NCBI RefSeq assembly: GCF_902829255.1
Contig: NZ_CADEPK010000300.1
Location: 1-45,458 of the forward strand
Direction of reading: 5' to 3'
Source of the DNA: Metabacillus niabensis
GTDB taxonomy: Bacteria; Bacillota; Bacilli; Bacillales; Bacillaceae
DNA length: 45,458 nt
Shown here: one piece after another, positions 3,901 through 29,572 of the stretch
Numbering within the stretch: position 1 is the stretch's first letter
How the letters are laid out: the number at the start of each line of letters is the position of its first letter
Program-made: the position numbers and the translations under genes
Notes under the pieces: generated by a model
What the model was told of the DNA's origin: nothing
The model's input: only the letters and a program-made list of their open reading frames with translations
Database searches by the model: none

Positions 3901-4018
3901 ATGGCAAAAACTCCATCGGCAATCTGAAATAGCTTAATACCCCCATAACTAAAATAAGCATGGACAGTAAAGTTACAGCTGCTTTGTTCTTAAAAGACCA
4001 TTTTGTAAACCAAGACAT
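989..4018 (-). CDS. swrC: RND-family multidrug/surfactin exporter, SwrC-like
   Basis: A 1009-residue inner-membrane exporter of the RND (AcrB/HAE1) superfamily. The architecture fits: helix 1 at residues 13-31, a large extracytoplasmic loop, a helix bundle at about 330-480, a second loop, and a final bundle at about 850-985. The segment 'GRLVDDSIVVIENIF' after about residue 390 carries the acidic pair of the proton relay typical of RND pumps. In Bacillus subtilis the closest known type is SwrC (YerP), which confers surfactin self-resistance and drug export; here the substrate is an inference. The start has a good ribosome site (GGAAGGAG, 8 bases upstream). No adaptor protein is adjacent, as is usual for Gram-positive SwrC. 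It is monocistronic, divergent from the small-protein pair at 4261, and followed by a hairpin. Confidence 0.9.
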   Translation of the reverse strand: MSWFTKWSFKNKAAVTLLSMLILVMGVLSYFRLPMEFLPSADQPFISVVTVGEGLDTKMMEEQVTTPIEKAVNSVNGKTNVFSTTGDGYSSIDINFESTIDKKEAKREIEEALANVTLPANVSKPNVVQLNTSMIPISYIALTFDEGVTPKTIEYAEEEIVPYYKDIAGVADIQMNGKIPSYISVKLDEKKMAEKQVTMESVMTLLQGQNLATAVGEKEIDGKTANIKVIGDVNTLEKLQNTEVIPAVPLKDIAGVSVEKQDKTLTKLNGKDGFVLIATKDSHSNAVSISKEIEKVSDEINEKYDNLEANVILATSDSVESSVHSMIKEVLLGALFATIVIMIFLRNLRSTLITIVSIPLSLGFTLFLLSQSGVTLNILTLGGVAVAVGRLVDDSIVVIENIFRRSQTEKFSVAMVIDATKEVGKAITASTLTTVAVFLPMGLLNGSLQDFLLPFALTITYSLLASLIVAITVVPVMSAGLLKHAKIKEHQPSVKFAKMLTWSLNHKWVVLLTAFIVFAGSVGAYLVLPKGSVNKTKPDYVYVGLTYPNETPIETVKTGAEKLEEFVLAQDGVKNVYLQVGNDQDAAKYGGVGNPTEAQILTTLEKDVDSKEVVKKINSQKDEYKNATLEATEASLMGGGATSITIDVVGDNLDELITVSEKVRAEIKDIDGIEKVSTNQEETKVVYSFAVNPSVAKADQISSQAAVMLNQTPLGMIEMNNIQTAVMLEPLYNPETEKDLSNVPIMTETGMTPISKVAKLERNEEPTSSFHKDGEQYIRVTATIEPEKLSAISSEVNQKIFGDGEKDGIEIPDNTEVLIGGASVDQASDFNDLFMTMLASIGIVFLIMLITFKTMRAPIAILFSLPLAAIGAILGIIISGITVDVTTLLGALMLIGIVVTNAIVLLDRVKQNEETMIIRDALVEAASVRMRPIIMTAVATISAMLPLLFKEAEAGNLVSSSLAVVVIGGLSVATVLTLVVIPVIYELLHFKKAKKQRLAKENVNETIAS

Positions 4019-11387: not shown

Positions 11388-11424
11388 AAAAAGTGTTCGT
11401 CACACATAAAGTGACAAACACTTA
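11388..11424 (-). terminator. Terminator ending the cobalamin operon
   Basis: A 13-bp near-perfect stem (arms about 11391-11403 and 11411-11423, one mismatch) is followed on the minus strand by TTTTTTC. It overlaps the stop codon of the ECF S-component gene, so transcription ends almost with translation. Confidence 0.88.
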
Positions 11425-12105
11425 TTCAAGCAAACCGTATTTTTTTCTAAACCGCTGCAATATTTTTATCCAGCTATTTGCAAAAACAATGATAAAAAAC
11501 GCATTAGAGACAGCATGAGCTAAATCAAAATAAATGCTTGCCGCATAATACTTAATGACTTCCTCTAAACGAAAATTATCGCCGAGACTTACGACATACC
11601 ATAAATTCATAATCCAACCATATACTATTCCAGAGGTAAATCCATAAATAACTCTTCCATATGTCCTTTGCATAAACGATGTATTCCGTAAAAATCCCGC
11701 AACCAAACCGAGCATTCCCCATGAATACATTTGCCAAGGTGTCCAAGGACCTTGCCCTAAAAACAAATTAGATACTAATGCAGCAAGCGCCCCAACAACA
11801 AAGCCACTTTCTGCTCCAAAGACAAGTCCCGTCATGATGATGACAAATGATGTAGGCTGCACACTGGGGATCGCGGCAAATGGTACACGGCTTACTGCAG
11901 CAATTGCAGCTAATACCGCTAGCATGACAAGCTCTCTCCCAGTGACACGCCTTTTCTCAAAGCGAATAACAAAAGGGAGAAACGTTAATAAAGTGATGAT
12001 TCCACTTACTAGCAAAAAATGCCTGTTAACAAGAAGTGGTGTCAAAATAAGAAGGCAGCCAATAATGACAATGCTCGAAATAAGGATTACTCGTGTACGC
12101 GCCAA
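11422..12105 (-). CDS. ECF transporter S component, probably for cobalamin (CbrT-like)
   Basis: A 227-residue integral membrane protein with about six helices, the substrate-binding subunit of an energy-coupling-factor transporter. Typical features are the helix-1 segment 'ELVMLAVLAAIAAVSRVPFA', the small-residue-rich 'GAESGFVVGALAALVSNLFLG' and 'GPWTPWQMYSWGMLGLVAGF', found in S components placed beside cobalamin genes. An extra hydrophobic N-terminal part (residues 5-45) precedes the core. I chose a TTG start at 12105 because the GGAGG ribosome site lies inside the end of the ATPase gene, whose last 19 bases overlap this gene; upstream extension would only read the ATPase in another frame. 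Vitamin B12 as substrate is inferred from the riboswitch and the neighbours. Confidence 0.82.
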   Translation of the reverse strand: MARTRVILISSIVIIGCLLILTPLLVNRHFLLVSGIITLLTFLPFVIRFEKRRVTGRELVMLAVLAAIAAVSRVPFAAIPSVQPTSFVIIMTGLVFGAESGFVVGALAALVSNLFLGQGPWTPWQMYSWGMLGLVAGFLRNTSFMQRTYGRVIYGFTSGIVYGWIMNLWYVVSLGDNFRLEEVIKYYAASIYFDLAHAVSNAFFIIVFANSWIKILQRFRKKYGLLE

Positions 12106-13736
12106 TATTCCTTTGCCTCCTCTACCGTTAATACACTCGGTACATCGCTTCCTCTCGTCATCCGATTGAGTACAGTTGTATAAAATGCATTTCCCTGAAA
12201 AAAGTCCTTTGCTGCCGCTGCAGTTGTAATGGACCCTTGGAACATCATTGCACATCTTGTTGCATATTTTGCGGCGAATTCAATATCATGTGTTACCATG
12301 ACAATTGTTAAGCCCTCATTCTGTAATGACTTTAATAAATCGCCAAATCTTAACTTTGCCTCTGGATCAAGACCTTTTGTCGGCTCATCAACAAGGAGAA
12401 GCTTTGGTTTTGCTAAAAGCACCCCTGCAAGTGCGGCTTTCTGCATTTCTCCTCCACTTACATCGTATGGATGGTGATGCTTAATATGGTGAAGCTGAAA
12501 AACATCAGCTAACCGTTCAATTTCCGCTTTTCCCTTTTCAAGTTGCTGAAGCTTTATAATCTCTAGCCATTCGGACTCAATTGTATCCTGTACAAAAAAC
12601 AGCTTTGGGTTTTGTGGGAGATAGCCAATTTCAGTTGGTAACTGTCTTTTTCTCTTTTTCCCTTGATAATAGACTGAGCCACACTGCGCCTTTTCAAGAC
12701 CTGCCATAATTTTTAATAATGTTGATTTTCCAGTCCCATTTGCCCCAACAATTGAAAGCCATTCTCCTTGATAGACTGTTAACGATAACCGATCAAGAAT
12801 TTTCGCAGTATCCTTATCATATTGAAAATCAATATCCTTTAATTTCAACAGTTCCTCTGAAAACCTTTTTGCTATGTTAGGCACTGTTACTGCTTCAACC
12901 TTGTGCTTCTTAAGCCAGCTCTTACCTTCCTTTACCGACAATGGAATCAGTTCATTCTGGATCACCTTTGAATGCTCAATATATAATCTTGCTGGACTTG
13001 GTAAATAAGGATATAACGGATGATTTCTGTTTTGAGCAAGGCTGCTGATTACCTCTCTCGGGTGATCAAATGCAGCAATTTCACCCTCAACTAAGACTAT
13101 CGTTCGATCGGCAATCCCGAAAAGCTCCTCCAACCGATGCTCTGCAATTATGACAGTTATCCCAAACTCTTCATTCATCGTTTGCAGCATGCCGATAAAT
13201 TCTCTTGCTGCTACCGGATCTAATTGTGATGTCGGCTCATCAAGCAATAACAATTTAGGCTCTAGCAATAAGACAGAGGCTAAGTTAACCAATTGCTTCT
13301 GTCCACCTGATAACTCATGTGTTTTGCGATTTAGCAAGCCTTCTAGCCCGAAGAAATGAACAATTTCTGCAACACGCTTTCTCATTTCCTCCGTCGATGC
13401 TCCCATATTCTCCAGGCCAAAAATCAGCTCCTGTAACACATTATCCATGACAATTTGATTTTCCGGATCTTGAAAAACCATTCCAATATTTTGTGCCATC
13501 TGCTCTGCCGATGCCGTCGATAAAGCTTGTCCTTCAAGGAAAAACTCTCCTTCTATCGTACCGTGTGGAGCAATTTCTCGTTTGATTAGCCTTAGTAAGG
13601 TAGATTTTCCGCTTCCAGATGGCCCACATAATACAATAAACTCACCTTGTTGAATCGTAAACGAAAGATCATTTACAACACGCTTCTTTTCATCAGGATA
13701 TGTAAAGCTTACATGCTTCGCTTCCAAAAATGCCAT
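12087..13736 (-). CDS. Fused double ATPase of an ECF transporter (EcfA-EcfA')
   Basis: A 549-residue protein with two complete ABC ATPase domains. Domain 1 has Walker A 'GPSGSGKS' (38-45), signature 'LSGGQ' (142-146) and Walker B 'LLLLDEP' (162-168); domain 2 has 'GANGTGKS' (331-338), 'VSGGE' (426-430) and 'LLLVDEP'. Many ECF systems use two separate ATPases; here they are fused by a linker at about 240-300. The gene overlaps the T-component gene before it (28 bases) and the S-component gene after it, indicating translational coupling. The fusion makes this a dedicated module rather than the shared ecfA1A2T of the ribosomal cluster. It powers uptake by the neighbouring S component. Confidence 0.93.
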   Translation of the reverse strand: MAFLEAKHVSFTYPDEKKRVVNDLSFTIQQGEFIVLCGPSGSGKSTLLRLIKREIAPHGTIEGEFFLEGQALSTASAEQMAQNIGMVFQDPENQIVMDNVLQELIFGLENMGASTEEMRKRVAEIVHFFGLEGLLNRKTHELSGGQKQLVNLASVLLLEPKLLLLDEPTSQLDPVAAREFIGMLQTMNEEFGITVIIAEHRLEELFGIADRTIVLVEGEIAAFDHPREVISSLAQNRNHPLYPYLPSPARLYIEHSKVIQNELIPLSVKEGKSWLKKHKVEAVTVPNIAKRFSEELLKLKDIDFQYDKDTAKILDRLSLTVYQGEWLSIVGANGTGKSTLLKIMAGLEKAQCGSVYYQGKKRKRQLPTEIGYLPQNPKLFFVQDTIESEWLEIIKLQQLEKGKAEIERLADVFQLHHIKHHHPYDVSGGEMQKAALAGVLLAKPKLLLVDEPTKGLDPEAKLRFGDLLKSLQNEGLTIVMVTHDIEFAAKYATRCAMMFQGSITTAAAAKDFFQGNAFYTTVLNRMTRGSDVPSVLTVEEAKEYWRVHE

Positions 13737-14596
13737 CGTATCCCCTCCCTTCCTTCAATTAAAAGCGGTGAACTTAAATATATGAAATAAAGAAACAGAT
13801 AAAACCATTCTCTTCCTTGAATCGACATCGTTTCTAGTATTGGATAAATACTTAACACTCCATCACCTAGCCACCAACCAAATAACGCTATCGTAAACAG
13901 TGCAAGGATGTAAATGATCGCTAGCAAATCCTTCCCCTTCAGCTTATAAGGCGTATACTTACTTCGTTTTTTCACTCCATACCCTCTGGCCGCCATTGAA
14001 TCTGCTGTTTGAATCGCATCCTCCAATGACCATGTAAGCAATATTTGCACGAGCAAGATGCCGTTTTTCGCTCGTTCCTTTAGCTTTCCTTCAATTACTG
14101 AAAGGCCTTTCCCTTTTTGGACAACCTCAATTTCCTTCAATCGTCTTCGTAATAGAGGGACAAACCTCATCGAAAGCATTGTCAGCAATGCCCATTGTGG
14201 TAACCATTTTGCAAATAAAAATAAAAATTTATCTGCGGTTATCACATGATTATACGAGGCAAACAAAACGATAAGAGTAAAAATGGACAATGCCAAAATA
14301 AGACCCTGGATTACCGCCTCAAGCATAATCGGGTTATGATGGAAATAAAACAAAATATGTGTTCCGCGATGATTAATAAGTGGATTTATAAGTAAAAAAA
14401 AGCCGGTCAGGATGATTAGCATCTTAAACCAATTTTTTAACGCTTTCCCTTTATCTAATTGATAATTAAATAAAATAAAAATAATTGCGCCAACAAGCAA
14501 AAACACCGGATGCTTATAAAGCATAACCAGTGCTGCTGCCCCAACATAATATAAAAAAAGTACAAAAGGGTGGAAAGCATGAACCCCTCTAGACAT
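13709..14596 (-). CDS. ECF transporter T component (EcfT/CbiQ family)
   Basis: A 295-residue membrane protein of the CbiQ/EcfT family, the scaffold that couples the ATPases to the S component. About six hydrophobic segments are interrupted by a cytoplasmic coupling region; the typical Ala-Arg-Gly motif appears as 'MAARGYG' (201-207), preceded by 'RFVPLLRRRLKEIE' at 144-157. The ATG overlaps the stop of the upstream lipoprotein gene by one base (TAATG), and its 3' end overlaps the ATPase gene. The run of overlaps from 15486 to 11422 marks one translational unit. Confidence 0.92.
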   Translation of the reverse strand: MSRGVHAFHPFVLFLYYVGAAALVMLYKHPVFLLVGAIIFILFNYQLDKGKALKNWFKMLIILTGFFLLINPLINHRGTHILFYFHHNPIMLEAVIQGLILALSIFTLIVLFASYNHVITADKFLFLFAKWLPQWALLTMLSMRFVPLLRRRLKEIEVVQKGKGLSVIEGKLKERAKNGILLVQILLTWSLEDAIQTADSMAARGYGVKKRSKYTPYKLKGKDLLAIIYILALFTIALFGWWLGDGVLSIYPILETMSIQGREWFYLFLYFIYLSSPLLIEGREGIRWHFWKRSM

Positions 14597-15486
14597 TACT
14601 TTTCATCCTCTACATAATTCGTCGTATAAATCCATTGTACTGTATCCCCATTTTTCACTTGGACTGCACCTGAACTTCTCGTTAATTTCACACCATTCTT
14701 TTTAACCATCCAGCCACTTAAAGGTCCTTTATCAAATTCATATAGGTTATTTATCCCTTCCACATAAGCTGAAGAACCACTCCCAGTAACACTAACTTGA
14801 ATTCCTCTTTGCTTAAGAATGGCTAGCGTTACATCTATTACTGTTTGCCCTTCTTTTATTTCAACCTTTGTAGGTGACAAAATTGTCCCAGTATCACTAA
14901 CTACTGATACAGTTACCGTCTGTTTTGGTTCTGCCTTCTGAGTTGGTGTTGTTTGCTGCTTATTAGGTGTAGCTGCAGGCTTAGTCGGTTGTTTAGTCGG
15001 TTGTTTCTCTTCAGTTGGTTTAGTCGTTGGCGTCTTCTTTGTTGATTGATCCGCGCTATTTGTCGTTGTATTATTTGAAGCTGTGTTATTTGTTGTTGAT
15101 TTATTTGGTGTCGCTGTATTTTCCTTACCTGTTGTCTCGTTCGTGTTTGTTGAAGTTTTTGGTGCTGTATTTATCGTTTCGTTCTTTTTCGTATTTGATG
15201 ATGGTTCTGTATTTTCCACAGACTTTTGAGTGCCGGCTGAATCATCTTTTGCTTCCCCATCAGTCTCCTGCTTTTCTTCTATATTATTCGCCGCATCCGT
15301 TTGCTTTGATTCAGCTTTTTTATCGGCCTGCTCCTCTTTATCCTGAGTATCGGCTACATTTTCCTCTGAAGCCTTTTCTCCAGCTGCGGATTGGTCTGTC
15401 ATTGGAACAACTTCATCCTTTGCACAACCGGACATAAAAACAAAAAAAGATAGAAGAGCAATCAACATTATTTTCCCCATCTTCAT
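14596..15486 (-). CDS. Lipoprotein with a DUF4430 (transcobalamin beta-like) domain, probable cobalamin relay protein
   Basis: A 296-residue secreted lipoprotein: a signal sequence with lipobox 'FMSGC' (acylated Cys21), then a flexible low-complexity stretch (about 30-205, rich in Thr, Asn, Lys, Pro and Gln) that could span the wall, then one globular domain at about 205-290. That domain fits DUF4430, the fold of the C-terminal beta domain of transcobalamin and intrinsic factor: 'VEIKEGQTVIDVTLAILKQ', 'GPLSGWMVKKNG' and 'VQVKNGDTVQWIY'. It sits between the surface protein gene and the ECF genes of a cobalamin-riboswitch operon, and I infer that it passes cobalamin to the S component. An AGGAGG site lies 8 bases before the ATG. 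Confidence 0.82.
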   Translation of the reverse strand: MKMGKIMLIALLSFFVFMSGCAKDEVVPMTDQSAAGEKASEENVADTQDKEEQADKKAESKQTDAANNIEEKQETDGEAKDDSAGTQKSVENTEPSSNTKKNETINTAPKTSTNTNETTGKENTATPNKSTTNNTASNNTTTNSADQSTKKTPTTKPTEEKQPTKQPTKPAATPNKQQTTPTQKAEPKQTVTVSVVSDTGTILSPTKVEIKEGQTVIDVTLAILKQRGIQVSVTGSGSSAYVEGINNLYEFDKGPLSGWMVKKNGVKLTRSSGAVQVKNGDTVQWIYTTNYVEDEK

Positions 15487-15569
15487 TTCAAAAACCTCCT
15501 ATCTCCATTACAGTACAAATTGTCTTTTCTAAGAATTTCATAAACAAGCTGTGGCATAAAAAATAGGAA

Positions 15570-15600
15570 AACGCCCTCTAAGGATTAAGAGGGCATTTCT
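15570..15600 (-). terminator. Intercistronic hairpin after the surface-protein gene
   Basis: A perfect 7-bp GC-rich stem (GCCCTCT/AGAGGGC, about 15573-15595) followed on the minus strand by GTTTTCC and then TTTTTT. It lies immediately after the surface protein's stop and before the lipoprotein gene, so it probably lowers transcription into the transporter part of the operon. Confidence 0.7.
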
Positions 15601-15601
15601 A

Positions 15602-17641
15602 TTAAGCGTTTTGCGAGCGACGTCTAGTATAAATAAGTACAGCAGTTCCTATAACCGCAATAACAACACCGATGACAATTAAGTTATAAAGTGGTGTTGC
15701 TGTATTTGGAAGCTGATGTCCTTCCGCTTTTTGTGACAGTTCTACATTGCTATTTCCTTCATTCTGATTTACTTTCGAATTATCGGTGTTTGAAGCTTCA
15801 TTATCAGTTGCTGGAACAGGCTTGTTATTCTCAACTGGAGCCTCTGGTGCTGGTGTCTCAACTTTATTATCGCTATCCTCTTCAGGTACTACTACTTCTG
15901 TATCTGGTTGAGAAAATTGATAGATTGAGCTTTTTCCTTCATTTAGATAATCCTGATATGCTAATAACGCTAAAAGCGCTTGTGTGCTTGCCATATAATC
16001 GGATTCATTATCAGCAAGTAAATGAGCAAACCCTCCATCTTCTTGCTTAAATGTTAAAAGGTGCTGAATTAGGTTTATATGATTAGAAGCTGATTCTACA
16101 GTCGATTGCTTCGTAAACTGTTCCCCTGTTGGATCAACACCAACAGCTGTTAATCCAATAATGACTTGTGCAGTTGTTTCACTGGCGTCTCCACCGTTAT
16201 ATTCGTCACTAAATCCTCCATCATTATCCTGCTCATTAGCAATCCACTCAACTGCCTTATTAATTGCAGACTTAACATTTTCTTGGTCTTGATATGGAGC
16301 TAATGCTGTAAGGATCATAGCTGTAATATCGATACTTTCCTTACTGTTAGGTGCTAATGACCAGCCACCAGATTCAAGTTGTTCATTTAATAAATACTTA
16401 ACAAGAGCTTCTCTTGTCCATTTTGCATTACTTGGAATTTCATAATTCCCACTGTCAAGAGCAATTAATGCATAAGCAACTCCGTTATTTCCTTGAATAG
16501 TCATCCGCTCATTATTATAAATTTTTTCTACTAAATCATAGCCAACAAAACTTTTGGCATCTACATTAGCAGAAGTTAAGCTTAAAACAATTTTCTCATA
16601 ATCTGTAACATTTCTATAGACACCATCTCGATCAATTATTTCTTTTTTAAGCTCTTCTATATATGATTTTGGTAATTCATCGCCAACAATATTTAAAGCA
16701 ACTGCTGTCATATGGTCTTGAATACCATTTGTTGTAAAATATTTGTCAGCTAAATGATTGATAGTAGCATTTACTGTTTCTTTTGTGACAGGGTCAGCTT
16801 CAGGTTGTGGTTCTGGATTTGGTTCTGGGGTTGGGGTTGGATTTGGACTTTCCTCTTCAGGTAGCCCATTACCTGTATCTGGCTCCTCTTCCTCTCCTGA
16901 ACCTTCATCATCTACCTTTGGTAATCTTAATTCAATATGATCACCACTTTTAGGAATATATGAAGAAAGGCCTTCCATCATTGAAATACCATTTAAATTA
17001 ACACTCCAATAATCTGTCTCACCTAGCTCTGTGTTCCCTATATTATTTATAAAGGCAAACCAAGTTGAATCGATTGATGCATCTACTTCGACATTAGCTA
17101 ATTTCCCTGCTAGCTTTACTGCATCATAGCCACTTGAACCTTTAAAAACGGATACCGTTTCATCAAGTATTTTATTTCCCTTTTGATCGATTGCTGATAC
17201 TGTCACATCAACCTGTTCATATGGATAGCCTGACACTTTAAAGAGAAGGCTATCACCATTTTTTACAGAATAGCCATCAGCTCCTACTGTAGCAGGTTCA
17301 CCATTAATACTGAGCGTCCAATATTGCCCTGCAGGTAATGTAACATTCCCTATATTATTTATAAATGGTCCGTATGTCGGATCTATTGGTGCATCTAATG
17401 GAATATCTTTCGCTTCTGTTATTTCCTTAAGTACATCATATGCAGTTTGTCCTTCCTTTATATTTACAGCTGTTAAAGGTAAAACTGCCTCTCCATTGTG
17501 GTCAACAGCTGAAATTGTTGCTCCGTTTTCTAACGATGCTGCTTCAACGTTTTGTGGAGTAAACGAAACAACTTGAAAGATTGCAAGTAACATAATCATA
17601 AAAATAGCAATAAACCGTTGTGACAAGTATTGTTTGTTCAA
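15602..17641 (-). CDS. Cell-wall-anchored transcobalamin/intrinsic-factor-like protein
   Basis: A 679-residue secreted protein. Residues 1-35 are a signal peptide. Two DUF4430 domains follow (about 40-138 and 142-241), each with an 'INNIGN' turn (94-99 and 199-204), a YW...NG strand and a GD turn. After a Pro/Glu linker (245-285) comes an all-helical domain (about 286-570) with three toroid repeats of the 'GGW/GGF...A..AL' type (near 425, 475 and 535). A second linker leads to the sorting signal LPNTA (644-648), a membrane helix and a basic tail. DUF4430 and the helical toroid are the two domain types of animal intrinsic factor/transcobalamin, here in reversed order. LPNTA suggests a class D-type sortase, which is not in the window. 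The leader holds a cobalamin riboswitch, supporting a role in B12 capture. Confidence 0.85.
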   Translation of the reverse strand: MNKQYLSQRFIAIFMIMLLAIFQVVSFTPQNVEAASLENGATISAVDHNGEAVLPLTAVNIKEGQTAYDVLKEITEAKDIPLDAPIDPTYGPFINNIGNVTLPAGQYWTLSINGEPATVGADGYSVKNGDSLLFKVSGYPYEQVDVTVSAIDQKGNKILDETVSVFKGSSGYDAVKLAGKLANVEVDASIDSTWFAFINNIGNTELGETDYWSVNLNGISMMEGLSSYIPKSGDHIELRLPKVDDEGSGEEEEPDTGNGLPEEESPNPTPTPEPNPEPQPEADPVTKETVNATINHLADKYFTTNGIQDHMTAVALNIVGDELPKSYIEELKKEIIDRDGVYRNVTDYEKIVLSLTSANVDAKSFVGYDLVEKIYNNERMTIQGNNGVAYALIALDSGNYEIPSNAKWTREALVKYLLNEQLESGGWSLAPNSKESIDITAMILTALAPYQDQENVKSAINKAVEWIANEQDNDGGFSDEYNGGDASETTAQVIIGLTAVGVDPTGEQFTKQSTVESASNHINLIQHLLTFKQEDGGFAHLLADNESDYMASTQALLALLAYQDYLNEGKSSIYQFSQPDTEVVVPEEDSDNKVETPAPEAPVENNKPVPATDNEASNTDNSKVNQNEGNSNVELSQKAEGHQLPNTATPLYNLIVIGVVIAVIGTAVLIYTRRRSQNA

Positions 17642-17698
17642 AGAATAACTCCTCCTTTATATGTTTTCCCTTTCTTAACTTAAAGAAAGCAATGCAAC

Positions 17699-17727
17699 AA
17701 AAAAACACCCCTATGCAGAGATGTGTT
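17699..17727 (-). terminator. Riboswitch-controlled terminator (expression platform)
   Basis: Arms AACACATC (17720-17727) and GGGGTGTT (17704-17711), with one mismatch and one wobble, are followed on the minus strand by a T7 run at 17699-17705. It lies between the cobalamin aptamer and the surface-protein start codon, where a ligand-promoted terminator would be expected. Confidence 0.72.
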
Positions 17728-17808
17728 TGTTACAACGATATATAGATAAGAGCTATCTACTTCTTTGTTCTCAAACATCATCCCTATCCGCGTAGGTTAT
17801 TGATGACA

Positions 17809-17978
17809 AAAAATAGGCAGGTCTCCTGGCTTATGATCAACACTCACTTTACAACCTTCCCATTAAACAACAGTGGTATATCTGTAAAAGAGCTCCCATT
17901 TACAGTGGCGGGACCGCGCCGGATTCACACCGGTCTTCCCTTTTCATGATAGACAGCTAAATCTATCAACCTATTTTT
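17809..17978 (-). promoter_or_regulatory. Adenosylcobalamin (B12) riboswitch aptamer
   Basis: Read on the minus strand, this holds the conserved core of the cobalamin riboswitch: the block GACCGGTGTGAATCCGGCG, then GGTCCCGCCACTGT, then GGGAAGG, and the 3' B12 box AAGCCAGGAGACCTGCC (17816-17832). The closing helix P1 is formed by AAAAATAGG (17970-17978) and CCTATTTTT (17809-17817). The class binds adenosylcobalamin or related corrinoids and switches the downstream gene off when the vitamin is plentiful. It governs the surface protein and probably the whole transporter operon. Confidence 0.97.
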
Positions 17979-18015
17979 ATTCTATTAATTTTTAAAATCA
18001 TTATATGACTTTTTT

Positions 18016-18044
18016 ATCATAGTCTAGGATAAATCACCTGTCAA
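18016..18044 (-). promoter_or_regulatory. Sigma-A promoter of the cobalamin operon
   Basis: On the minus strand a perfect -35 TTGACA (18039-18044) is separated by exactly 17 bases from -10 TATGAT (18016-18021). The predicted start is near 18009, about 30 bases before the riboswitch aptamer. Confidence 0.88.
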
Positions 18045-20245: not shown

Positions 20246-21595
20246 TTAATATTCGTTTTCGAAAAATCCATTCGCAATTGTGTGCTTAAACCAGTAAAAG
20301 CTGTCTTTTTTTGTCCGCTCTAAAGTTCTATAGTTGACGTGAACGATACCAAAGCGCTTGCTATAGCCCTCTGCCCATTCGAAATTGTCCATAAGTGACC
20401 ATGTTAAGTAGCCTTTAATATTAACGCCGGATTCGATGCTGCGGCTTAAAGCTGTTAAGTGTTGTTTTAAATATTTAATGCGACGCTCATCTTTTACGCG
20501 TCCGTTTTCAGGCTCGTCATTGTAGCATGAGCCATTTTCCGTGATGTAGATCGGCACTTGACCATAGCGTTCTGTAATATATGTTAACACCTTATAGAAG
20601 CCTTCAGGGAATACAGGCCAGCCGATATCTGTACGTTCGTAGCCCATGTCGATTCCTTCTGAATCAAATAAGCCGCTGTTTTCTTTGTAGCGTGCCACCT
20701 GGCCGTTGTAATAGTTGATACCTAGGAAATCGATCGGTTGGTGAATTGTTTCTAAGTCACCCTCTTCAATATGAAGTTCAGCACCTTTTGCCTTAAACCA
20801 GTCAACCATGAATTGCGGATATTCTCCTTTGAATACAGGGTCCATAAACCACTCCACAAAGTATGCAATTTCACGGCGACAAGCATCGATATCTTCCTGT
20901 TTATTGCTATATGGCTCCATCCAAGTTGTGTTTGGTGCAAAGCCGATTTCACCTTCAATATTTAACGCTCTAAATGCTTTAACTGTTTTACCATGCGCTA
21001 CAAGGAGGTTATGTGAAATATCAACCGCTAATTGAAGATCTCTGTTTCCAGGCGCATGCTCTCCTAAGTAGTTTGATAGAAATGAAATACACCATGGTTC
21101 ATTTAGCGTAATCCAATGTTTGATTTTTCCCGCGAATTCTTTGAACATTGTTTCAGAATATGCAACAAATGCGTCAATCGTTTCGCGATTAGCCCAACCA
21201 CCTTTGTCCTGTAATGCTTGTGGAAGATCCCAATGGTATAGAGTACACATTGGTTCAATTCCTGCTTCTAGTAATTTATCAACAAACTTATGATAGAATT
21301 CTAAGCCCTTTTGATTGATTTCACCTGTTCCATGTGGGAAAATACGTGGCCATGCAACGGAGAATCGGTAAACATCTACACCTAAGTCCTTTAAAATTTC
21401 AATATCTTCTTCATAACGGTGATAGCTATCACATGCAACATCACCGTTATCCCCATTTTTTACTTTTCCAGGTGTATGTGAAAACGTATCCCAAATAGAC
21501 AAGCCTCTTCCATCTTCAAAAGCTGCACCTTCAATTTGATAGGATGCAGTTGCTGCTCCCCATTTCATATCTTTAGAAAATTGTACAATTGCCAT
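20246..21595 (-). CDS. GH1 beta-glucosidase family enzyme
   Basis: A 449-residue cytoplasmic glycoside hydrolase of family GH1, of normal length. The N-terminal 'WGAATASYQIEGA' motif, the acid/base Glu166 in 'TLNEP' and the nucleophile Glu353 in 'YITENGS' are all present, and no signal peptide is seen. The family removes terminal beta-linked glucose (or mannose, or 6-phospho-sugars) from short oligosaccharides. As the last gene of a mannan oligosaccharide operon it probably trims beta-glucosyl or beta-mannosyl residues from gluco- or galactoglucomannan fragments; this is inference from context. It follows the esterase gene by 24 bases and ends at hairpin element A. Confidence 0.93.
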   Translation of the reverse strand: MAIVQFSKDMKWGAATASYQIEGAAFEDGRGLSIWDTFSHTPGKVKNGDNGDVACDSYHRYEEDIEILKDLGVDVYRFSVAWPRIFPHGTGEINQKGLEFYHKFVDKLLEAGIEPMCTLYHWDLPQALQDKGGWANRETIDAFVAYSETMFKEFAGKIKHWITLNEPWCISFLSNYLGEHAPGNRDLQLAVDISHNLLVAHGKTVKAFRALNIEGEIGFAPNTTWMEPYSNKQEDIDACRREIAYFVEWFMDPVFKGEYPQFMVDWFKAKGAELHIEEGDLETIHQPIDFLGINYYNGQVARYKENSGLFDSEGIDMGYERTDIGWPVFPEGFYKVLTYITERYGQVPIYITENGSCYNDEPENGRVKDERRIKYLKQHLTALSRSIESGVNIKGYLTWSLMDNFEWAEGYSKRFGIVHVNYRTLERTKKDSFYWFKHTIANGFFENEY

Positions 21596-21619
21596 TTTTC
21601 TAGCCTCCTATGTTGATGA

Positions 21620-22234
21620 TTATTTTAATCGTTCGCCTGCTGCTTGAATCCATGTTGTTGCCATTAGCATATTGCCAGTAGAATTCATATGAACTCCGTC
21701 TGTTGTTAATTTGTATCCATTGTTTGCTTTTAAATAATCAATAAAAGCTCTATGTGTAGGAACTAAAGTTGCGTCAAATTGTTGAGCAACCTTACGAATG
21801 ACCGCAACATAGTTAGGTAGTAATTGATTACCACGGGATTCTACATCCTCATCAATAACGGTCGGCTCCATAAGAATGATCTTCGCATTTGTTTTTTCTT
21901 TTACTTGTGTTAACAGGTCAACATATAGATGTTCAAATTGCTTCACACTTACTTGTTCCATTTCTGGGTGATCGATTTGTCGCCAAACATCGTTAATGCC
22001 AATTGAAATCGAAATAACATCTGGATTAGGAGCAATTGCATCCTGCTGCCATCTTTCCGCTAAATCTGTTATGCGATTTCCCCCAACACCTCGATTTAGA
22101 AATGTAAATTGCTTATTTGGATATAAAGTAACGAAGTAATCATGAATAAGACGAACATAGCCAGTACCGATATCCTCAGGGTCTCCATGTCTTCCCCATT
22201 CCGTAATACTATCACCGATAAATAACACTTTCAT
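21620..22234 (-). CDS. SGNH/GDSL-type esterase (probable acetyl-mannan oligosaccharide esterase)
   Basis: A 204-residue cytoplasmic SGNH hydrolase with all four blocks: Ser9 in 'GDSIT', the Gly-Gly-Asn of block II at 51-53, Asn81 in 'GIND', and Asp179/His182 in 'DGVH'. Such enzymes remove acetyl groups from sugars; in plant glucomannan the mannose units are acetylated, so deacetylation would let the neighbouring mannosidases work (inference from context). The frame is open 12 codons further upstream into the end of the GH113 gene, but an AGGGGTGAT site 7 bases before this ATG sets the start. Confidence 0.87.
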   Translation of the reverse strand: MKVLFIGDSITEWGRHGDPEDIGTGYVRLIHDYFVTLYPNKQFTFLNRGVGGNRITDLAERWQQDAIAPNPDVISISIGINDVWRQIDHPEMEQVSVKQFEHLYVDLLTQVKEKTNAKIILMEPTVIDEDVESRGNQLLPNYVAVIRKVAQQFDATLVPTHRAFIDYLKANNGYKLTTDGVHMNSTGNMLMATTWIQAAGERLK

Positions 22235-22253
22235 TTTATCTATCACCCCTTGA

Positions 22254-23219
22254 TTATCTTTGTTTTGCATACCACTCTTTGACTACCTTTTCTGCCTTTT
22301 TGCCATAAATGTCAAAGTAAGTATTTGTTTTTGCTTCCTCAATCGGGTAAAGCTTCGTGCTCCAATCCCACCAGAAAAAACCTGCAAACCAAGGCTCATC
22401 CCAGAATACCTTCATAACAGAGCTATAGAAATTGGCTTGTTCCTCCTCACTAAACGGAAGCTCAATATGTTCAAAGTCCCACGGCATTGTTGCACAGCCT
22501 TCTGCACTTCGACAGCCAATTTCCATAAACAGAATTGGCTTATTAAATTTCTCATGAAGCTTGAGTAAATTCCCTTTGACCTTTTCCCAATTTTTCATCA
22601 TCGTTTCTTCACTGTCCCCAGGCTTTTCAGCAACTGGATAATATGCGCTTGTACCAATAATGTCGACTTTATCGAACCACTCGACACCTTCTTCTTTTCC
22701 ATGATTTGCATTATAAATAATAGGACCATGATAAACTTCTCTTACCTTCTCAATCACCGTTTCCCATTGCTTTGTTCGTGATTCTGTTCCGATCATCTCA
22801 CACCCAATACAGAACATTTCACAGCCGAGCTCCTCAGCAAGCTCAGCATAGTGTACGAGAAAATTCGTATAGGAAGTAAACCATTTATTCCAATATTCTG
22901 TTGCATCCTCAGGAAAAGTAATTCTCGCTCTCCATAGCCCATCCTTCGAATTGACGACAGGCTTTAAACAAACCTTCATTCCGAGCTCCTTCGCCTTTTT
23001 CACAGCAAATTCAATGTCTCGATCCGTCATTGTATAGCCATAATCAAAGGTAATGTCTGTTGACGAAAAGGTATTTTGGTACGTGAAAAATGATAATGCG
23101 ATCCATTCAGTACCTGTTTCCTTTAATTTCTCTAATGATTCGACTGCTTCAGGAGTTCGATAGGCACCACGCGACGTATTCCAGCCATACGTCATTCCTT
23201 TCACAAATATTTCCTTCAT
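22254..23219 (-). CDS. GH113 beta-1,4-mannanase, copy 2
   Basis: A 321-residue cytoplasmic (no signal peptide) member of GH113, whose characterised members are endo- or exo-acting beta-1,4-mannanases. 'KGMTYGWNTSRG' opens the barrel, 'CLKPVVNSKDGLWRA' forms the substrate cleft, the acid/base is Glu141 in 'GCEM' and the nucleophile Glu233 in 'LFMEIGC'. A second GH113 gene lies at 28407. The start was set at the ATG preceded by AAGGAGG at 7 bases. The intracellular location suggests that it cuts imported manno-oligosaccharides to mannobiose rather than the polymer outside. Confidence 0.87.
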   Translation of the reverse strand: MKEIFVKGMTYGWNTSRGAYRTPEAVESLEKLKETGTEWIALSFFTYQNTFSSTDITFDYGYTMTDRDIEFAVKKAKELGMKVCLKPVVNSKDGLWRARITFPEDATEYWNKWFTSYTNFLVHYAELAEELGCEMFCIGCEMIGTESRTKQWETVIEKVREVYHGPIIYNANHGKEEGVEWFDKVDIIGTSAYYPVAEKPGDSEETMMKNWEKVKGNLLKLHEKFNKPILFMEIGCRSAEGCATMPWDFEHIELPFSEEEQANFYSSVMKVFWDEPWFAGFFWWDWSTKLYPIEEAKTNTYFDIYGKKAEKVVKEWYAKQR

Positions 23220-23464
23220 TTTGTTCCCTCCTTGATACCTCATGCTTTCTTATGCAACAGATGTATCTGTTTTCGATGCTAACGAGACATTTCCATATCT
23301 TTTAGAAAATCTTTGTAATGGTTTATCAGCAAGATGTAGCAAAAATTCTTGATTTAATGCTTAGTACTAATAAATAAACAAAATCAACGAGTTTGAAGCT
23401 TAAGCACATATATGTTTTAGATCCGTTAAAAGCATATCGATATTCATGCTTTATCTCCCAACCT

Positions 23465-24463
23465 TTAACCGAATGTTCCTAAAATATTATCAATCGCTTG
23501 AAGCTCTTCGAATGTAAACGAGAGGTTGTCCAATGCACCTACGTTTTCAATAACTTGTTCTGTTTTACTTGCTCCAATTAATGCTGAGGCAACAACTTGA
23601 TGTCTCAATGTCCAGGCAATTGCCATTTGAGCAACAGATTGATTTCTTTCTGCTGCAATCGCTTTTAATTTTTGGACCTTTTCGATCCGTTCTTTTGTCA
23701 CCTGCTCTGCTGATATCGAATCAACACCCTTTGCTACGCGTGAATCATTTGGAATACCTTGAACGTATTTTGTTGAAAGGAGTCCTTGATATAAAGGCTG
23801 GAATACGATTGCTCCAATGCCTCCTTCATCTAACACGTTGAATAGCTCATTCTCAGCATCTCTTAGAAACATCGAGTAATTTGGCTGATGTGAAACAAAC
23901 GGTGTTTTTAATTCCTTAAAAAGCTTAATTACCTTACGCGTAACGTCAGCAGGATAATTCGAAACACCTACATATAAAGCTTTCCCTTGTCTAACAGCGG
24001 TATCTAATGCCCCAACTGTTTCCTCCAATGGAGTTTGTGGGTCATAGCGATGTGAATAATAAATGTCTACATAATCAAGCTTTAATCGTTTAAGACTTTG
24101 GTCTAAGCTTGAAAGCATGTACTTCCTTGAGCCCCATTCCCCATATGGACCAGGCCACATATCATATCCCGCTTTAGTTGCGATTAATAATTCATCACGA
24201 TAGTTAGATAGCTCCTCATTTAGAATTCTCCCAAAATTTATTTCCGCACTTCCTGAAGGCTCACCATAATTATTTGCGAGGTCAAAATGAGTGATTCCGA
24301 GATCAAAAGCAGTCGTAATCATTTTCTTAGCAGCAGCAAAATCATCCGTATCTCCGAAATTTCGATAAAGACCTAAGGAAATAGCTGGAACTTTCAAACC
24401 ATTTTTTCCTAGGTAATTATATCGCATCTGTTCATAACGATTTTCTTTTGGTATGTATGACAA
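23465..24463 (-). CDS. Aldo/keto reductase, YghZ-like
   Basis: A 332-residue NAD(P)H-dependent aldo/keto reductase. The opening 'RYEQMRYNYLGKNGLKVPAISLGL' matches the YghZ/L-glyceraldehyde-3-phosphate reductase group; the catalytic tetrad is visible as Asp (in 'THFDLANNYG'), Tyr (same motif), Lys (in 'IATKAG') and His (in 'YYSHRYD'). I chose a TTG start because GGAGAG lies 7 bases before it and the resulting N-terminus matches the family; an ATG five codons upstream has no good site. It is embedded in the mannan operon between a LacI gene and GH113, an unusual position. Its substrate is unknown; detoxification or reduction of a sugar aldehyde is a guess. Confidence 0.85.
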   Translation of the reverse strand: MSYIPKENRYEQMRYNYLGKNGLKVPAISLGLYRNFGDTDDFAAAKKMITTAFDLGITHFDLANNYGEPSGSAEINFGRILNEELSNYRDELLIATKAGYDMWPGPYGEWGSRKYMLSSLDQSLKRLKLDYVDIYYSHRYDPQTPLEETVGALDTAVRQGKALYVGVSNYPADVTRKVIKLFKELKTPFVSHQPNYSMFLRDAENELFNVLDEGGIGAIVFQPLYQGLLSTKYVQGIPNDSRVAKGVDSISAEQVTKERIEKVQKLKAIAAERNQSVAQMAIAWTLRHQVVASALIGASKTEQVIENVGALDNLSFTFEELQAIDNILGTFG

Positions 24464-24493
24464 TGTTCTTCTCTCCATTCAGCATGAGATAAG

Positions 24494-25555
24494 TTATGAT
24501 TTTTCTATAGATGCAGTTGATTCACGTAATAAAATCGAACCGCTTAATAATACCTTTTCAAATGGTGTGTCTTTTTCCCTTACTCGTCGCATCAACATGT
24601 CAACCGCTCGCATGCCAAGCCCTTTTTTCGCAATATCAACCGTTGTTATCGTTGGTGAGATCGCATAAGAAAACTCCATATTATCGAAGCCTGTGACCGA
24701 TATGTCCTTTGGGACGTTCAAACCACATTCCTGTAAAACGGTAATCATTTGCATTGCCATATTATCATTGCTACAAACAATTGCTGTTGGCATGGATGTT
24801 TTACTTAGGTTGTTAATCCATTTTTTGATTTTTTCTTTCGATAAAATCTCATCTTCCTCATAATCAATCGTGTTATTTAATACAGGTAGCCCGTTTTTTT
24901 CAAGTGCACTCCGATACCCAAGCCATCGATCGTAAAAGCTACGTGAATAGTTGATATTTCCAATAAATTGAATCCGTCTATGTCCTAAGCCAATTAAATG
25001 AGTCGTTAATTGATAGCTGCTATCAAAGCTATTATTGAAAACGGTATCACTTGGAATTAACGGCTCCTCATAATCAACCATAATTAATGGAATCCCCAAA
25101 TGGTGTACTTCGAGTAATAAAGTAGTAGAAACAACACCGATGCTGATGACACCAAAAAGCCCCTTAGGATTTACGACATTTTCTAGGCTTTCAACATTGT
25201 TTTCTGTTAAAACAACCATTCCTGTACCGATACCTTCAAGGCTTTCACTAATTCCATCTAGTATTCGCCCCCAATATCTAGATTCCTTATTTTGAAAACG
25301 AATATTTGGCATTAGAACTAAAACAACCTTATTTTTCTGTTGAGCAGATTCTAATGACTGGTTGAGAGCAATTGCTTGAGGTTCATCCAGCTTTTGATTT
25401 TTTTGAGAAAAGTATCCAAGCTTTGCAGCAGCCTGGAATACTTTTTCTCTTGTAGCAGAATTTACCCCTTCCTTTCCAGATAAGGCTCTGGAAACAACAA
25501 ACTTTGATACACCTAAGTAATCTGCTATTTGTTGCATTGTTACTTTCTTAGCCAT
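24494..25555 (-). CDS. LacI-family transcriptional regulator (mannan operon, copy 1)
   Basis: A 353-residue LacI/GalR regulator. The N-terminal helix-turn-helix is 'TMQQIADYLGVSKFVVSRAL' (about 5-24), followed by the hinge and a periplasmic-binding-protein-like effector domain ('VLVLMPNIRF', 'AIVCSNDNMAMQMI', 'ISVTGFDNMEF'). It lies between the GH2 mannosidase and aldo/keto reductase genes and is likely autoregulated with them, responding to a manno-oligosaccharide or its breakdown product (inference). The DNA-binding domain is canonical. The second LacI of the locus (34256) has a different effector domain sequence. Confidence 0.92.
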   Translation of the reverse strand: MAKKVTMQQIADYLGVSKFVVSRALSGKEGVNSATREKVFQAAAKLGYFSQKNQKLDEPQAIALNQSLESAQQKNKVVLVLMPNIRFQNKESRYWGRILDGISESLEGIGTGMVVLTENNVESLENVVNPKGLFGVISIGVVSTTLLLEVHHLGIPLIMVDYEEPLIPSDTVFNNSFDSSYQLTTHLIGLGHRRIQFIGNINYSRSFYDRWLGYRSALEKNGLPVLNNTIDYEEDEILSKEKIKKWINNLSKTSMPTAIVCSNDNMAMQMITVLQECGLNVPKDISVTGFDNMEFSYAISPTITTVDIAKKGLGMRAVDMLMRRVREKDTPFEKVLLSGSILLRESTASIEKS

Positions 25556-25602
25556 GCTTTTAACTCACTCCACCTAGGGGCCATATTTGAATTAGCTTTC
25601 AC

Positions 25603-28068: not shown

Positions 28069-28312
28069 ACCCATTTCACCCCTAAGTTATATTTGTTATT
28101 TTGTTAGATTATCTCTATTGCTAAATTCAAATCTAACATCGGCATTTTCTTTGGCTATTTCCGTAAATTTCGTTGCTTTTTGAGCTGTTTATGGTTGATA
28201 GATCTAATAATTACGATTTAACTCCTTTTGTTATTTCTGTTATTATTTTTGTTATCATAACTCAACTTTATTACAATAACAAAAATAAGTAAATAGCTAA
28301 CAAAAATAATTT
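28069..28312. promoter_or_regulatory. Promoter region of the GH2 operon with inverted repeats
   Basis: No gene is seen here. A perfect 13-bp inverted repeat (TTATTTTTGTTAT at 28243-28255, ATAACAAAAATAA at 28276-28288) and a 7-bp pair AATCTAA/TTAGATT nearer the start codon are candidate operators or hairpins. A weak minus-strand promoter (TTAGAT, 17 bases, GATAAT) overlaps the shorter repeat. Confidence 0.4.
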
Positions 28313-28314
28313 TA

Positions 28315-28352
28315 AAAAAGGGTAGTACCTTGTCACGGTCCATACCCTTTTT
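28315..28352 (-). terminator. Terminator of the GH113 copy 1 gene
   Basis: A 10-bp perfect stem (AAAAAGGGTA at 28315-28324, TACCCTTTTT at 28343-28352), symmetrical, so it may act in both directions. Confidence 0.75.
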
Positions 28353-28406
28353 ATCTTGCAAATCCCTTTTAATACTAACAATTAGTTAATTCTCGTAAAC
28401 TTCTAC

Positions 28407-29336
28407 TTATTTAGCGGCATAAAATTCTTTAATAACCTTTTCTGCCGGTTTTCCGTATACAGCATAATCATCATTTTGCTCCGCCTCTTCTTCCTTATGA
28501 AGCAGCGCTTTCCAATCCCATAAACCAAAGCCACGAACCCATTCTTTCTGACCCGCTTTTTCAAACATGACTTTATAGTACGCTTCTTGCGCTTTCATAT
28601 CCGTTTCTCCTTCTAGCCCCCAATCATTAGGTACATAAGGAGAATTCGAACGACTCGGACATCCCGCCTCAGCAAAGAAAAATGGTTTATTATATGGTTT
28701 AATAATGTTTTCAATTCGTTCTAATTGGTTTTCCCAATCATCAATAGGATAGTATCCACTTGATGAAATGACATCAACCGCATCCCACCACTTCACATTT
28801 CCTTCCTGATATTTATCCGTATTGTACGTGATCGGGCCAGCATAAACTGTTCGAACCTCTTCAATTAAAGCTCGCCATTCTTTTTCTCTACGTTCTGTTT
28901 GAACCATTTCACAACCTACAATAAACATTTCACATTTTGTATCTTGAGCGATCTTTGCATAATGCATTTGGTACTCAGTGTAGCTTTTAAACCAATCCTT
29001 CCATTTCGGCTCACAAGGAACATCCAAATCAAAAAAGTTAATATGTGCTCTCCACGTACCATCCTTACAATTGACAGTCGGCTTTAAAATCACCTTTAAT
29101 CCAAGCTCTCTTGCATAATTAATCATATCTATTAATTCTTCGTCAGCTACCATATGGTCACCCGTATAATCGACGACTGTCGTATGAGCACCATCTTGCA
29201 ATGCAGCTAATGAAATAATTACGTAATCTGTATTCGTTCTTTCTTTTAAGAGCCTTAAAGATTCCTTAGCTTCAGGCTTCTTAAAATCTCCTTTTCTACT
29301 CATCCAACCAAAAGTAAACCCTTTAATAAATTCCAT
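28407..29336 (-). CDS. GH113 beta-1,4-mannanase, copy 1
   Basis: A 309-residue GH113 protein without signal peptide, clearly paralogous to the one at 22254 ('KGFTFGWMSRKG', 'ILKPTVNCKDGTWRAHI'). The acid/base is Glu143 in 'GCEM' and the nucleophile Glu223 in 'FFAEAGC'. It has its own upstream region and terminator, between the ABC transporter operon and the GH2 operon. The start was set at the ATG after AAGGAG; the frame is open 11 codons further upstream. Differences around the cleft (for instance 'DVPCEPKWKDWF' against 'DATEYWNKWF') suggest different chain-length or side-group preference, which is inference. Confidence 0.87.
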   Translation of the reverse strand: MEFIKGFTFGWMSRKGDFKKPEAKESLRLLKERTNTDYVIISLAALQDGAHTTVVDYTGDHMVADEELIDMINYARELGLKVILKPTVNCKDGTWRAHINFFDLDVPCEPKWKDWFKSYTEYQMHYAKIAQDTKCEMFIVGCEMVQTERREKEWRALIEEVRTVYAGPITYNTDKYQEGNVKWWDAVDVISSSGYYPIDDWENQLERIENIIKPYNKPFFFAEAGCPSRSNSPYVPNDWGLEGETDMKAQEAYYKVMFEKAGQKEWVRGFGLWDWKALLHKEEEAEQNDDYAVYGKPAEKVIKEFYAAK

Positions 29337-29368
29337 TTTACACAGCTCCTTATTCCTAAAGATGCACA

Positions 29369-29554: not shown

Positions 29555-29572
29555 CCCATCAAGCATCATTAT

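What the first reader, a model, noticed from the sequence alone, without database searches (positions are those of the whole stretch)
11388..18044. Riboswitch-controlled B12 capture-and-import operon with an intrinsic-factor-like surface protein
Seen: a consensus promoter, an adenosylcobalamin riboswitch with terminator, an LPNTA-anchored protein with two DUF4430 domains and a helical toroid, a lipoprotein with a third DUF4430 domain, then EcfT, a fused EcfAA' and an S component, largely overlapping. Known: DUF4430 and the alpha/alpha-toroid are the domain types of animal transcobalamin/intrinsic factor, and the ECF protein CbrT carries B12 in lactobacilli. Inference: a Gram-positive wall-to-membrane relay, functionally parallel to intrinsic factor plus receptor. 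I know of no worked-out description of such a complete wall-lipoprotein-ECF chain.
Basis: partly seen in the sequence, partly recalled or inferred. Interest (0 to 1): 0.93.

Follow-up and report, generated by a model that had tools for sequence, protein, structure and literature searches.

The report
Wall-to-membrane vitamin B12 import operon
A Bacillus relative carries a B12-controlled set of five genes that most likely catches vitamin B12 at the cell wall with a relative of our own B12 carrier proteins and passes it inward to a membrane pump; this kind of system was predicted in print in 2007, and I found no report of it being tested.

Summary
On the minus strand lie a cobalamin riboswitch (121 bits), a wall-anchored protein with two DUF4430 domains and a toroid, a DUF4430 lipoprotein, EcfT, a fused double ATPase and an S component. 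The S component belongs to the CbrT family (profile hit to the solved B12 transporter subunit CbrT, E 4e-39). DUF4430 matches transcobalamin and intrinsic factor by profile; the toroid matches only cyclase- and complement-type toroids. The genome has B12-dependent enzymes and no CobS.

The five-gene order recurs in 62 of 80 related loci. Comparison adds: receptors are wall-bound by LPxTA-type tails or by SLH domains; some operons carry their own class D sortase; the membrane-bound DUF4430 protein has a 72-182-residue tether in five-gene loci against 14-37 in compact loci; and the S component gains two N-terminal helices.

Novelty is limited. Burroughs et al. 2007 already described such operons and predicted B12 scavenging. 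Cobalamin binding and hand-off remain untested, and structure prediction could not be run. It is best filed as a well-supported member of a predicted but unproven kind, probably working like the Isd heme relay.

The parts
18016..18044 (-). promoter-like site TTGACA-17-TATGAT
   Evidence: 11 of 12 consensus matches, directly upstream of the riboswitch
17799..17989 (-). cobalamin riboswitch aptamer (RF00174)
   Evidence: 121.2 bits, E 4.9e-30
17705..17724 (-). intrinsic-terminator-like hairpin between aptamer and first gene
   Evidence: 8-pair stem followed by T run; the stretch 17640-17800 folds 3.5 sd below shuffles
15602..17641 (-). surface receptor, 679 aa, TTG start behind AAAGGAGG
   Evidence: ORF; DUF4430 x2, toroid, anchor
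17231..17452 (-). DUF4430 domain 1 of the surface receptor
   Evidence: 57.1 bits; profile A7 hits transcobalamin-1 at 6.4e-7
16922..17137 (-). DUF4430 domain 2 of the surface receptor
   Evidence: 31.1 bits
15893..16768 (-). alpha/alpha-toroid domain (residues about 292-583)
   Evidence: PF13243/PF00432; profile A6 hits squalene-hopene cyclases; DxDD cyclase motif in 0 of 35
15698..15712 (-). LPNTA sorting motif, followed by a membrane helix and a positive tail
   Evidence: NF058670 LPxTATN sorting signal, 41.5 bits against cut-off 32
15568..15599 (-). terminator-like hairpin after the receptor gene
   Evidence: such hairpins in 18 of 59 loci, window included, against 0 of 59 single shuffles
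14596..15486 (-). lipoprotein, 296 aa: lipobox Cys21, 169-residue low-complexity tether, C-terminal DUF4430
14623..14850 (-). DUF4430 domain of the lipoprotein
   Evidence: 55.1 bits; profile A4 hits transcobalamin-1 at 3.5e-6 in this domain
13709..14596 (-). EcfT transmembrane component
   Evidence: PF02361, 39.6 bits
12087..13736 (-). fused double ATPase EcfA-EcfA', 549 aa
   Evidence: two ABC_tran stretches; TIGR04520 above cut-off
11422..12105 (-). CbrT-type S component, 227 aa, with two extra N-terminal helices
   Evidence: PF12822; profile A2 hits CbrT 6fnp at 4e-39; helices by hydropathy
11391..11423 (-). intrinsic-terminator-like hairpin at the operon end
   Evidence: 13-pair stem with T run

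Best explanation
It is a B12-repressed scavenging operon. With enough adenosylcobalamin inside, the riboswitch most likely stops transcription. When B12 is short, the cell makes a receptor fixed to the wall by a class D sortase, which catches cobalamin at the surface with its DUF4430 and toroid domains. A lipoprotein, whose DUF4430 domain hangs on a roughly 170-residue flexible arm fixed in the membrane, takes the vitamin from the receptor and brings it to the S component. The dedicated ECF module (EcfT plus fused ATPases) then powers import. Shown by sequence: the riboswitch, gene order, domains, anchors, CbrT membership of the S component, tether lengths, the genome's B12-dependent enzymes and the lack of CobS. 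Inferred: the direction of the switch, cobalamin binding by the DUF4430 proteins, hand-off from receptor to lipoprotein to S component, and the tether acting as a swinging arm.
For: Riboswitch in the window, and in 38 of 40 DUF4430 loci that I picked from 115 matching genomes (misses L077, L079; L083 weak at 38.6 bits). S-component profile hits CbrT 6fnp at 4e-39, next hit 0.15; CbrT imports cobalamin and cobinamide (PMC5997447, passages read). DUF4430 profile hits transcobalamin-1 (6.4e-7), transcobalamin-2 (4.2e-5) and intrinsic factor (4.7e-3). Five-gene order in 62 of 80 loci; the exact B12 box GCCACTG within 900 nt upstream in 60 of those 62. Own genome: MetH, methylmalonyl-CoA mutase plus MeaB, NrdJ, and MetE and class I RNR behind the other two riboswitches; no CobS. 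Among 299 genomes of the order, DUF4430 occurs in 90 of 154 without CobS and in 25 of 145 with it (odds ratio 0.15; shared ancestry not corrected). Wall binding by two means: LPxT[A/S/G] tails in 59 of 115 receptor-like ORFs, and SLH domains in 19 of 19 long receptors that I picked among those without such a tail. Class D sortase between receptor and lipoprotein in 13 loci plus L064 (about 11 genomes), 6 of 6 tested above the NF058671 cut-off. Tether 72-182 residues in 77 five-gene loci against 14-37 in 12 compact loci.
Against: No binding or transport data. No structural model: the predictor was busy 18 times and then switched off. The toroid profile does not find transcobalamin, and the window's domain order is reversed. 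CobS is present in 8 of 39 genomes with two or more DUF4430 hits. MetH (PF02965) is rarer in DUF4430 genomes: 62 of 115 against 139 of 184 without, so demand must come from other enzymes in many. 18 of the 80 loci lack the five-gene order, partly because stretches end, partly from other layouts. L079 has neither a recognised S component nor a riboswitch. The plasmid copies of the operon or its parts (L171-L173) show no cobalamin riboswitch. Not every second DUF4430 protein is a lipoprotein: 10 of 87 five-gene loci failed my filter, and in 5 of these (L065, L067, L081, L134, L144) the N-terminus has no cysteine, only a hydrophobic stretch.
Confidence: 0.8

Rival explanations
1. Capture without relay: receptor and lipoprotein each bind cobalamin independently, the receptor serving as a wall-bound store or concentrator, and the lipoprotein alone feeds the transporter.
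For: Compact loci lack any receptor gene, with only a DUF4430 lipoprotein and an S component (12 loci), so a receptor is not essential to the kind. A terminator-like hairpin follows the receptor gene, so amounts may differ.
Against: The long tether goes with the wall receptor (77 five-gene against 12 compact loci, no overlap), which suggests reach toward the wall.
Confidence: 0.25
2. The imported substrate is a precursor or other corrinoid (cobinamide), not complete cobalamin.
For: CbrT also carries cobinamide (PMC5997447, passages read).
Against: The genome has no CobS match (completeness listed as 100), an enzyme needed to finish cobinamide (recalled), so a complete corrinoid is the useful substrate.
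Confidence: 0.1
3. The receptor is a surface enzyme or adhesin; its toroid is a terpene-cyclase relative with another task.
For: The toroid's closest solved relatives by sequence are squalene-hopene cyclases.
Against: The class II cyclase motif DxDD (recalled) is found in 0 of 35 toroids; the gene sits directly behind the riboswitch with the B12 transporter; DUF4430 is of the transcobalamin type.
Confidence: 0.07
4. A cobalt or nickel transporter, as the CbiQ name of EcfT suggests.
For: EcfT falls in PF02361, named cobalt transport protein.
Against: The S component is CbrT-type; no metal S component is among the ten window proteins scanned.
Confidence: 0.02

Closest known systems
Bacterial transcobalamin-like SLBB/toroid operons (Burroughs et al. 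2007, PMC1796856; abstract, section 7 part 1 of 2, reviewer report 1 and passages read)
   Same: Wall-anchored SLBB plus toroid protein, a second extracellular SLBB protein, CbiO-like ATPase, CbiQ-like membrane protein, predicted B12 scavenging; a Bacillus example with the toroid after the SLBB domain.
   Different: The main text does not mention riboswitch, sortase, S-layer or lipoprotein; in what I read there is no CbrT-type S component, no tether comparison and no experiment.
ECF-CbrT of Lactobacillus delbrueckii (PMC5997447, passages read)
   Same: Homologous S component (E 4e-39), EcfT and two ATPase domains; B12 import.
   Different: CbrT there is 182 residues (PDB chain), shares a general ECF module and lies in nrdJ-cbrS-cbrT-pduO; here a dedicated module, fused ATPases, two extra N-terminal helices and a wall receptor.
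Animal transcobalamin and intrinsic factor
   Same: DUF4430 domain detectable by profile; toroid plus DUF4430 in one secreted protein.
   Different: Wall-bound, two DUF4430 before the toroid, no toroid sequence match, delivery to an ECF transporter rather than an endocytic receptor (the latter recalled).
Isd heme relay of Staphylococcus (recalled; abstracts in search listing only)
   Same: Wall-anchored receptors with one domain type, a lipoprotein, an ABC importer, a dedicated sortase, repression when the nutrient is plentiful.
   Different: Unrelated NEAT domains, heme, and a classical ABC importer instead of ECF.
BtuG/BtuB of Bacteroides (PMC10404256, start of abstract in search listing)
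   Same: Surface protein that captures B12 for a transporter.
   Different: Outer membrane of Gram-negatives, TonB-dependent, unrelated fold (recalled).

Membership tests
ECF cobalamin transporter (CbrT type) | S component homologous to CbrT | tested here: met
   profile A2 against PDB: 6fnp E 4e-39, next 0.15
ECF cobalamin transporter (CbrT type) | EcfT and two ATPase domains | tested here: met
   PF02361 and two ABC_tran stretches
ECF cobalamin transporter (CbrT type) | control by a B12 riboswitch | tested here: met
   Cobalamin riboswitch 121.2 bits; its response was not measured
ECF cobalamin transporter (CbrT type) | ATP-driven cobalamin uptake | not testable with these tools
   needs a transport assay
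Transcobalamin/intrinsic factor | C-terminal beta domain (DUF4430) homology | tested here: met
   transcobalamin-1 6.4e-7, intrinsic factor 4.7e-3
Transcobalamin/intrinsic factor | toroid homologous by sequence | tested here: not met
   no transcobalamin hit up to E 10; best hit a squalene-hopene cyclase at 1.2e-17
Transcobalamin/intrinsic factor | toroid first, beta domain last | tested here: not met
   window order is DUF4430-DUF4430-toroid
Transcobalamin/intrinsic factor | cobalamin held between the two domains | not testable with these tools
   structure prediction unavailable; binding not measured
Bacterial transcobalamin-like SLBB operon (Burroughs 2007) | anchored SLBB-toroid protein, second SLBB protein, CbiO-like and CbiQ-like genes in one operon | tested here: met
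Bacterial transcobalamin-like SLBB operon (Burroughs 2007) | host lacks key B12 synthesis genes | tested here: met
   CobS absent; only this one synthesis gene was tested
Wall-anchored protein by class D sortase | LPxTA-type sorting signal and matching sortase | tested here: met
   NF058670; of five sortases found three were scanned, two of them above the NF058671 cut-off
Class II terpene cyclase | DxDD motif (recalled) | tested here: not met
   0 of 35 toroids
Isd-like relay | direct ligand hand-off from wall protein to lipoprotein | not testable with these tools
   needs purified proteins

The most novel reading that the evidence does not exclude
Gram-positive bacteria have a complete Isd-like relay for vitamin B12: a wall-fixed relative of intrinsic factor (held by sortase or by SLH domains), a membrane-tethered swinging-arm DUF4430 shuttle whose reach matches the wall, and a CbrT variant with two added helices that dock the shuttle. 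The system grew from a two-gene lipoprotein plus S-component core and is the living bacterial counterpart of the ancestor of the animal B12 carriers.
Probability: 0.5. Interest if true: 0.8.

Novelty: new member of a known kind. Interest (0 to 1): 0.55.

Why it matters
It would explain how walled bacteria catch a scarce, bulky vitamin and bring it through the wall, and it makes the 2007 proposal that animal B12 carriers came from Gram-positive bacteria directly testable with purified proteins. The tether, anchor and S-component correlations give concrete predictions that can be tested in harmless strains.

Tried and rejected
Cobalt or nickel import was rejected on the CbrT-type S component. 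A terpene cyclase was rejected on the missing DxDD motif. A chance assembly was rejected on 62 of 80 conserved loci. Toroid similarity to transcobalamin was looked for by profile and not found. Structure prediction of residues 36-585 with 35 homologues could not be run. Rodionov 2009 and Vitreschak 2003 are not held; I know them by recall only. The listings gave no experiment on these proteins; others (30 of 861 shown; 20 of 487 shown) were capped. MetH as a marker of B12 need did not track DUF4430. BtuFCD was not searched for.

Selection and dropped rows: the 40 loci L047-L086 were picked by me from 115 matching genomes, 22 of them (L047-L068) because they had paired hits. L087-L166 are the best 80 of 226 found by one toroid motif. 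By equal contig lengths five genomes occur in both sets (L048=L110, L054=L142, L058=L096, L063=L114, L068=L105). Of 87 five-gene loci (24, 62, the window) the tether count kept 77 (about 73 genomes) and dropped 10 by a lipobox, size and distance filter; five of the ten have no cysteine in the first 60 residues. One search kept 59 loci with a positive gap below 700 nt and used one mononucleotide shuffle each. The tree calls an S component long at 200 aa or more and leaves out those above 300. The A4 profile also drew chance hits from its low-complexity arm (calnexin 4.6e-4). Fisher and Mann-Whitney values ignore shared ancestry.
Full report
What is there. The window (contig C300 of a 4.99-Mb genome in 462 contigs) carries on its minus strand a promoter-like site, a cobalamin riboswitch, a terminator-like hairpin and five genes ending in a further hairpin. 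The first gene encodes a 679-aa secreted protein with two DUF4430 domains, a toroid and an LPNTA sorting signal. The second encodes a lipoprotein: signal peptide, lipobox cysteine 21, a low-complexity arm of 169 residues, then DUF4430. EcfT, a fused pair of ATPases and an S component follow with overlapping ends. Among the 80 loci kept, the nearest is a Bacillus sp. metagenome bin (92 percent best segment), then Metabacillus species.

The transporter. A profile of 26 S components hits CbrT, the solved B12 S component of L. delbrueckii, at E 4e-39 and 137 bits; the next PDB entry is at 0.15. CbrT imports cobalamin and cobinamide (PMC5997447, passages read). This settles the family of the S component; the substrate of this very protein is inferred.

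The binding proteins. A profile of the first DUF4430 domain hits transcobalamin-1 (6.4e-7), a putative metal-binding protein, 3u7z (2.3e-5), transcobalamin-2 (4.2e-5) and intrinsic factor (4.7e-3). The lipoprotein profile hits transcobalamin-1 at 3.5e-6 within DUF4430; chance hits from its low-complexity arm follow (calnexin 4.6e-4). A profile of 35 toroids hits squalene-hopene cyclases (1.2e-17) and, weakly, complement toroids (C5, 0.0098), but no transcobalamin up to E 10. The DxDD cyclase motif (recalled) is found in 0 of 35, so that catalytic role is unlikely. In the long, SLH-type relatives the alignment consensus shows a toroid before and another after DUF4430, so the order toroid then DUF4430 also exists.

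Physiology. The genome has three cobalamin riboswitches: this operon, MetE, and a class I ribonucleotide reductase. The B12-dependent counterparts are present: MetH (PF02965; the fragment scanned was cut by the locus end and scored 958 bits against a cut-off of 1011), NrdJ (467 bits, above cut-off), and methylmalonyl-CoA mutase with MeaB. CobS is absent. DUF4430 was found nowhere else in the genome. So the cell can use B12 and seems to switch off substitutes when it has it; this operon is the only importer found behind such a switch. Other B12 importers (BtuFCD) were not searched for.

Conservation. In 299 genomes of the order, 115 have DUF4430. I fetched 40 loci from 40 of these. 24 show the five-gene order, two (L078, L082) show receptor, lipoprotein and S component only, and 12 of the other 14 a compact pair of small DUF4430 lipoprotein plus S component. 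A cobalamin-type riboswitch is found in 38 of 40; the misses are L077 and L079, and L083 is weak. Of 80 further loci found by a toroid motif, 62 have the five genes in order on one strand; 60 of these have the exact B12 box within 900 nt upstream, and the two misses (L120, L146) begin at the stretch end. The other 18 include cut-off stretches, Clostridium layouts, and Paenibacillus-type loci with receptors but no complete transporter nearby. The same five genes lie on a 592-kb Latilactobacillus curvatus plasmid, annotated only in general terms; there neither a B12 box nor an Rfam riboswitch was found, and the second DUF4430 protein shows no cysteine in its first 70 residues.

What comparison adds. 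(a) Wall fixing is common while its means vary: LPxT[A/S/G] tails in 59 of 115 receptor-like ORFs, fragments included, and SLH domains in 19 of 19 long receptors that I picked from five-gene loci among those without such a tail. The remaining tail-less ORFs were not all examined. (b) A class D sortase gene sits between receptor and lipoprotein in 13 loci, and in L064 by a slightly looser overlap (about 11 genomes); 6 of 6 tested pass the LPxTATN-specific model. The window's genome has five sortases; of three scanned, two pass that model. (c) The distance from lipid anchor to DUF4430 is 72-182 residues (median 140) in 77 five-gene loci and 14-37 in 12 compact loci, without overlap. Ten further five-gene loci did not pass my filter; in five the N-terminus has a hydrophobic stretch but no cysteine, so the arm may also be held by a membrane helix. 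(d) In the S-component alignment, 14 of 14 five-gene members have an N-terminal extension with two or more hydrophobic helices; 0 of 12 others do. In a tree of 106 S components the 89 long ones (200 aa or more) fall in one clade with support 1.0, together with one short member that is cut off by its contig end. (e) A terminator-like hairpin follows the receptor gene in 18 of 59 loci, window included, and in 0 of 59 shuffled controls, which could give more receptor than transporter.

Need and synthesis. DUF4430 is found in 90 of 154 genomes without CobS and 25 of 145 with it. Against a simple picture, 8 of 39 genomes with two or more DUF4430 hits have CobS, and MetH is less common in DUF4430 genomes (62 of 115) than in others (139 of 184). 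Shared ancestry was not corrected.

Prior art. Burroughs et al. 2007 (PMC1796856; abstract, section 7 part 1 of 2, reviewer report 1 and passages read) defined the superfamily, reported anchored SLBB-toroid proteins including a Bacillus example with the toroid after the SLBB domain, noted a second paralogous SLBB protein and CbiO-like and CbiQ-like genes in the operons, noted missing B12 synthesis genes, and proposed B12 scavenging and transfer to animals. Riboswitch, sortase, S-layer and lipoprotein do not occur in that text. The label 'Additional lipoprotein component of putative cobalamin ECF transporter' appears in a table of PMC9963975 (passage read), and CbrT, CbrU and CbrV in PMC6722938 (passages read). 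The idea is therefore in print; I saw no test of it in the searches listed.

Verdict. The relay and the swinging arm are inferences with good comparative support and clear tests.

Noticed in passing
L167:3094-3429 (own genome, contig C9): The B12-dependent ribonucleotide reductase gene nrdJ is interrupted by a group I intron (RF00028, 70 bits).
   Followed up: partly
L003/L007 and L002/L008 (own genome, contigs C18 and C366): The two other cobalamin riboswitches precede MetE and a class I ribonucleotide reductase, the B12-independent substitutes.
   Followed up: yes
L171 (CP117684.1, 114052-119694): The same five-gene order lies on a 592-kb Latilactobacillus curvatus plasmid typed as mobilizable, but without a riboswitch match.
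   Followed up: partly
L059:9894-16085; L056; L047: Receptors with many DUF4430 domains: 10 counted by my profile in a 2063-aa protein; Pfam gives 11 hits in that genome.
   Followed up: partly
L124, L128, L131, L145: Paenibacillus-type loci with two receptor-like genes in a row behind a B12 box but no complete ECF operon in the fetched stretch.
   Followed up: no
L078, L082: Receptor, lipoprotein and S component without an ECF module, behind an AdoCbl-type riboswitch (RF01482), an in-between layout.
   Followed up: partly
L065, L067, L081, L134, L144: The second DUF4430 protein has a hydrophobic N-terminus without cysteine, so it may be held by a membrane helix instead of a lipid.
   Followed up: partly
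window 20246-36519, minus strand: Probable mannan-use cluster: GH1, GH113, GH2-type mannosidase, sugar-binding protein and GH130 phosphorylase.
   Followed up: no
window 989-4018, minus strand: RND-type efflux protein (ACR_tran, 569 bits) in a Gram-positive.
   Followed up: no
PMC12176410 (passage read): Two evolved lines of one bacterium in that study had separate frameshifts in the same DUF4430 gene, which hints that its loss can be tolerated or favoured.
   Followed up: no
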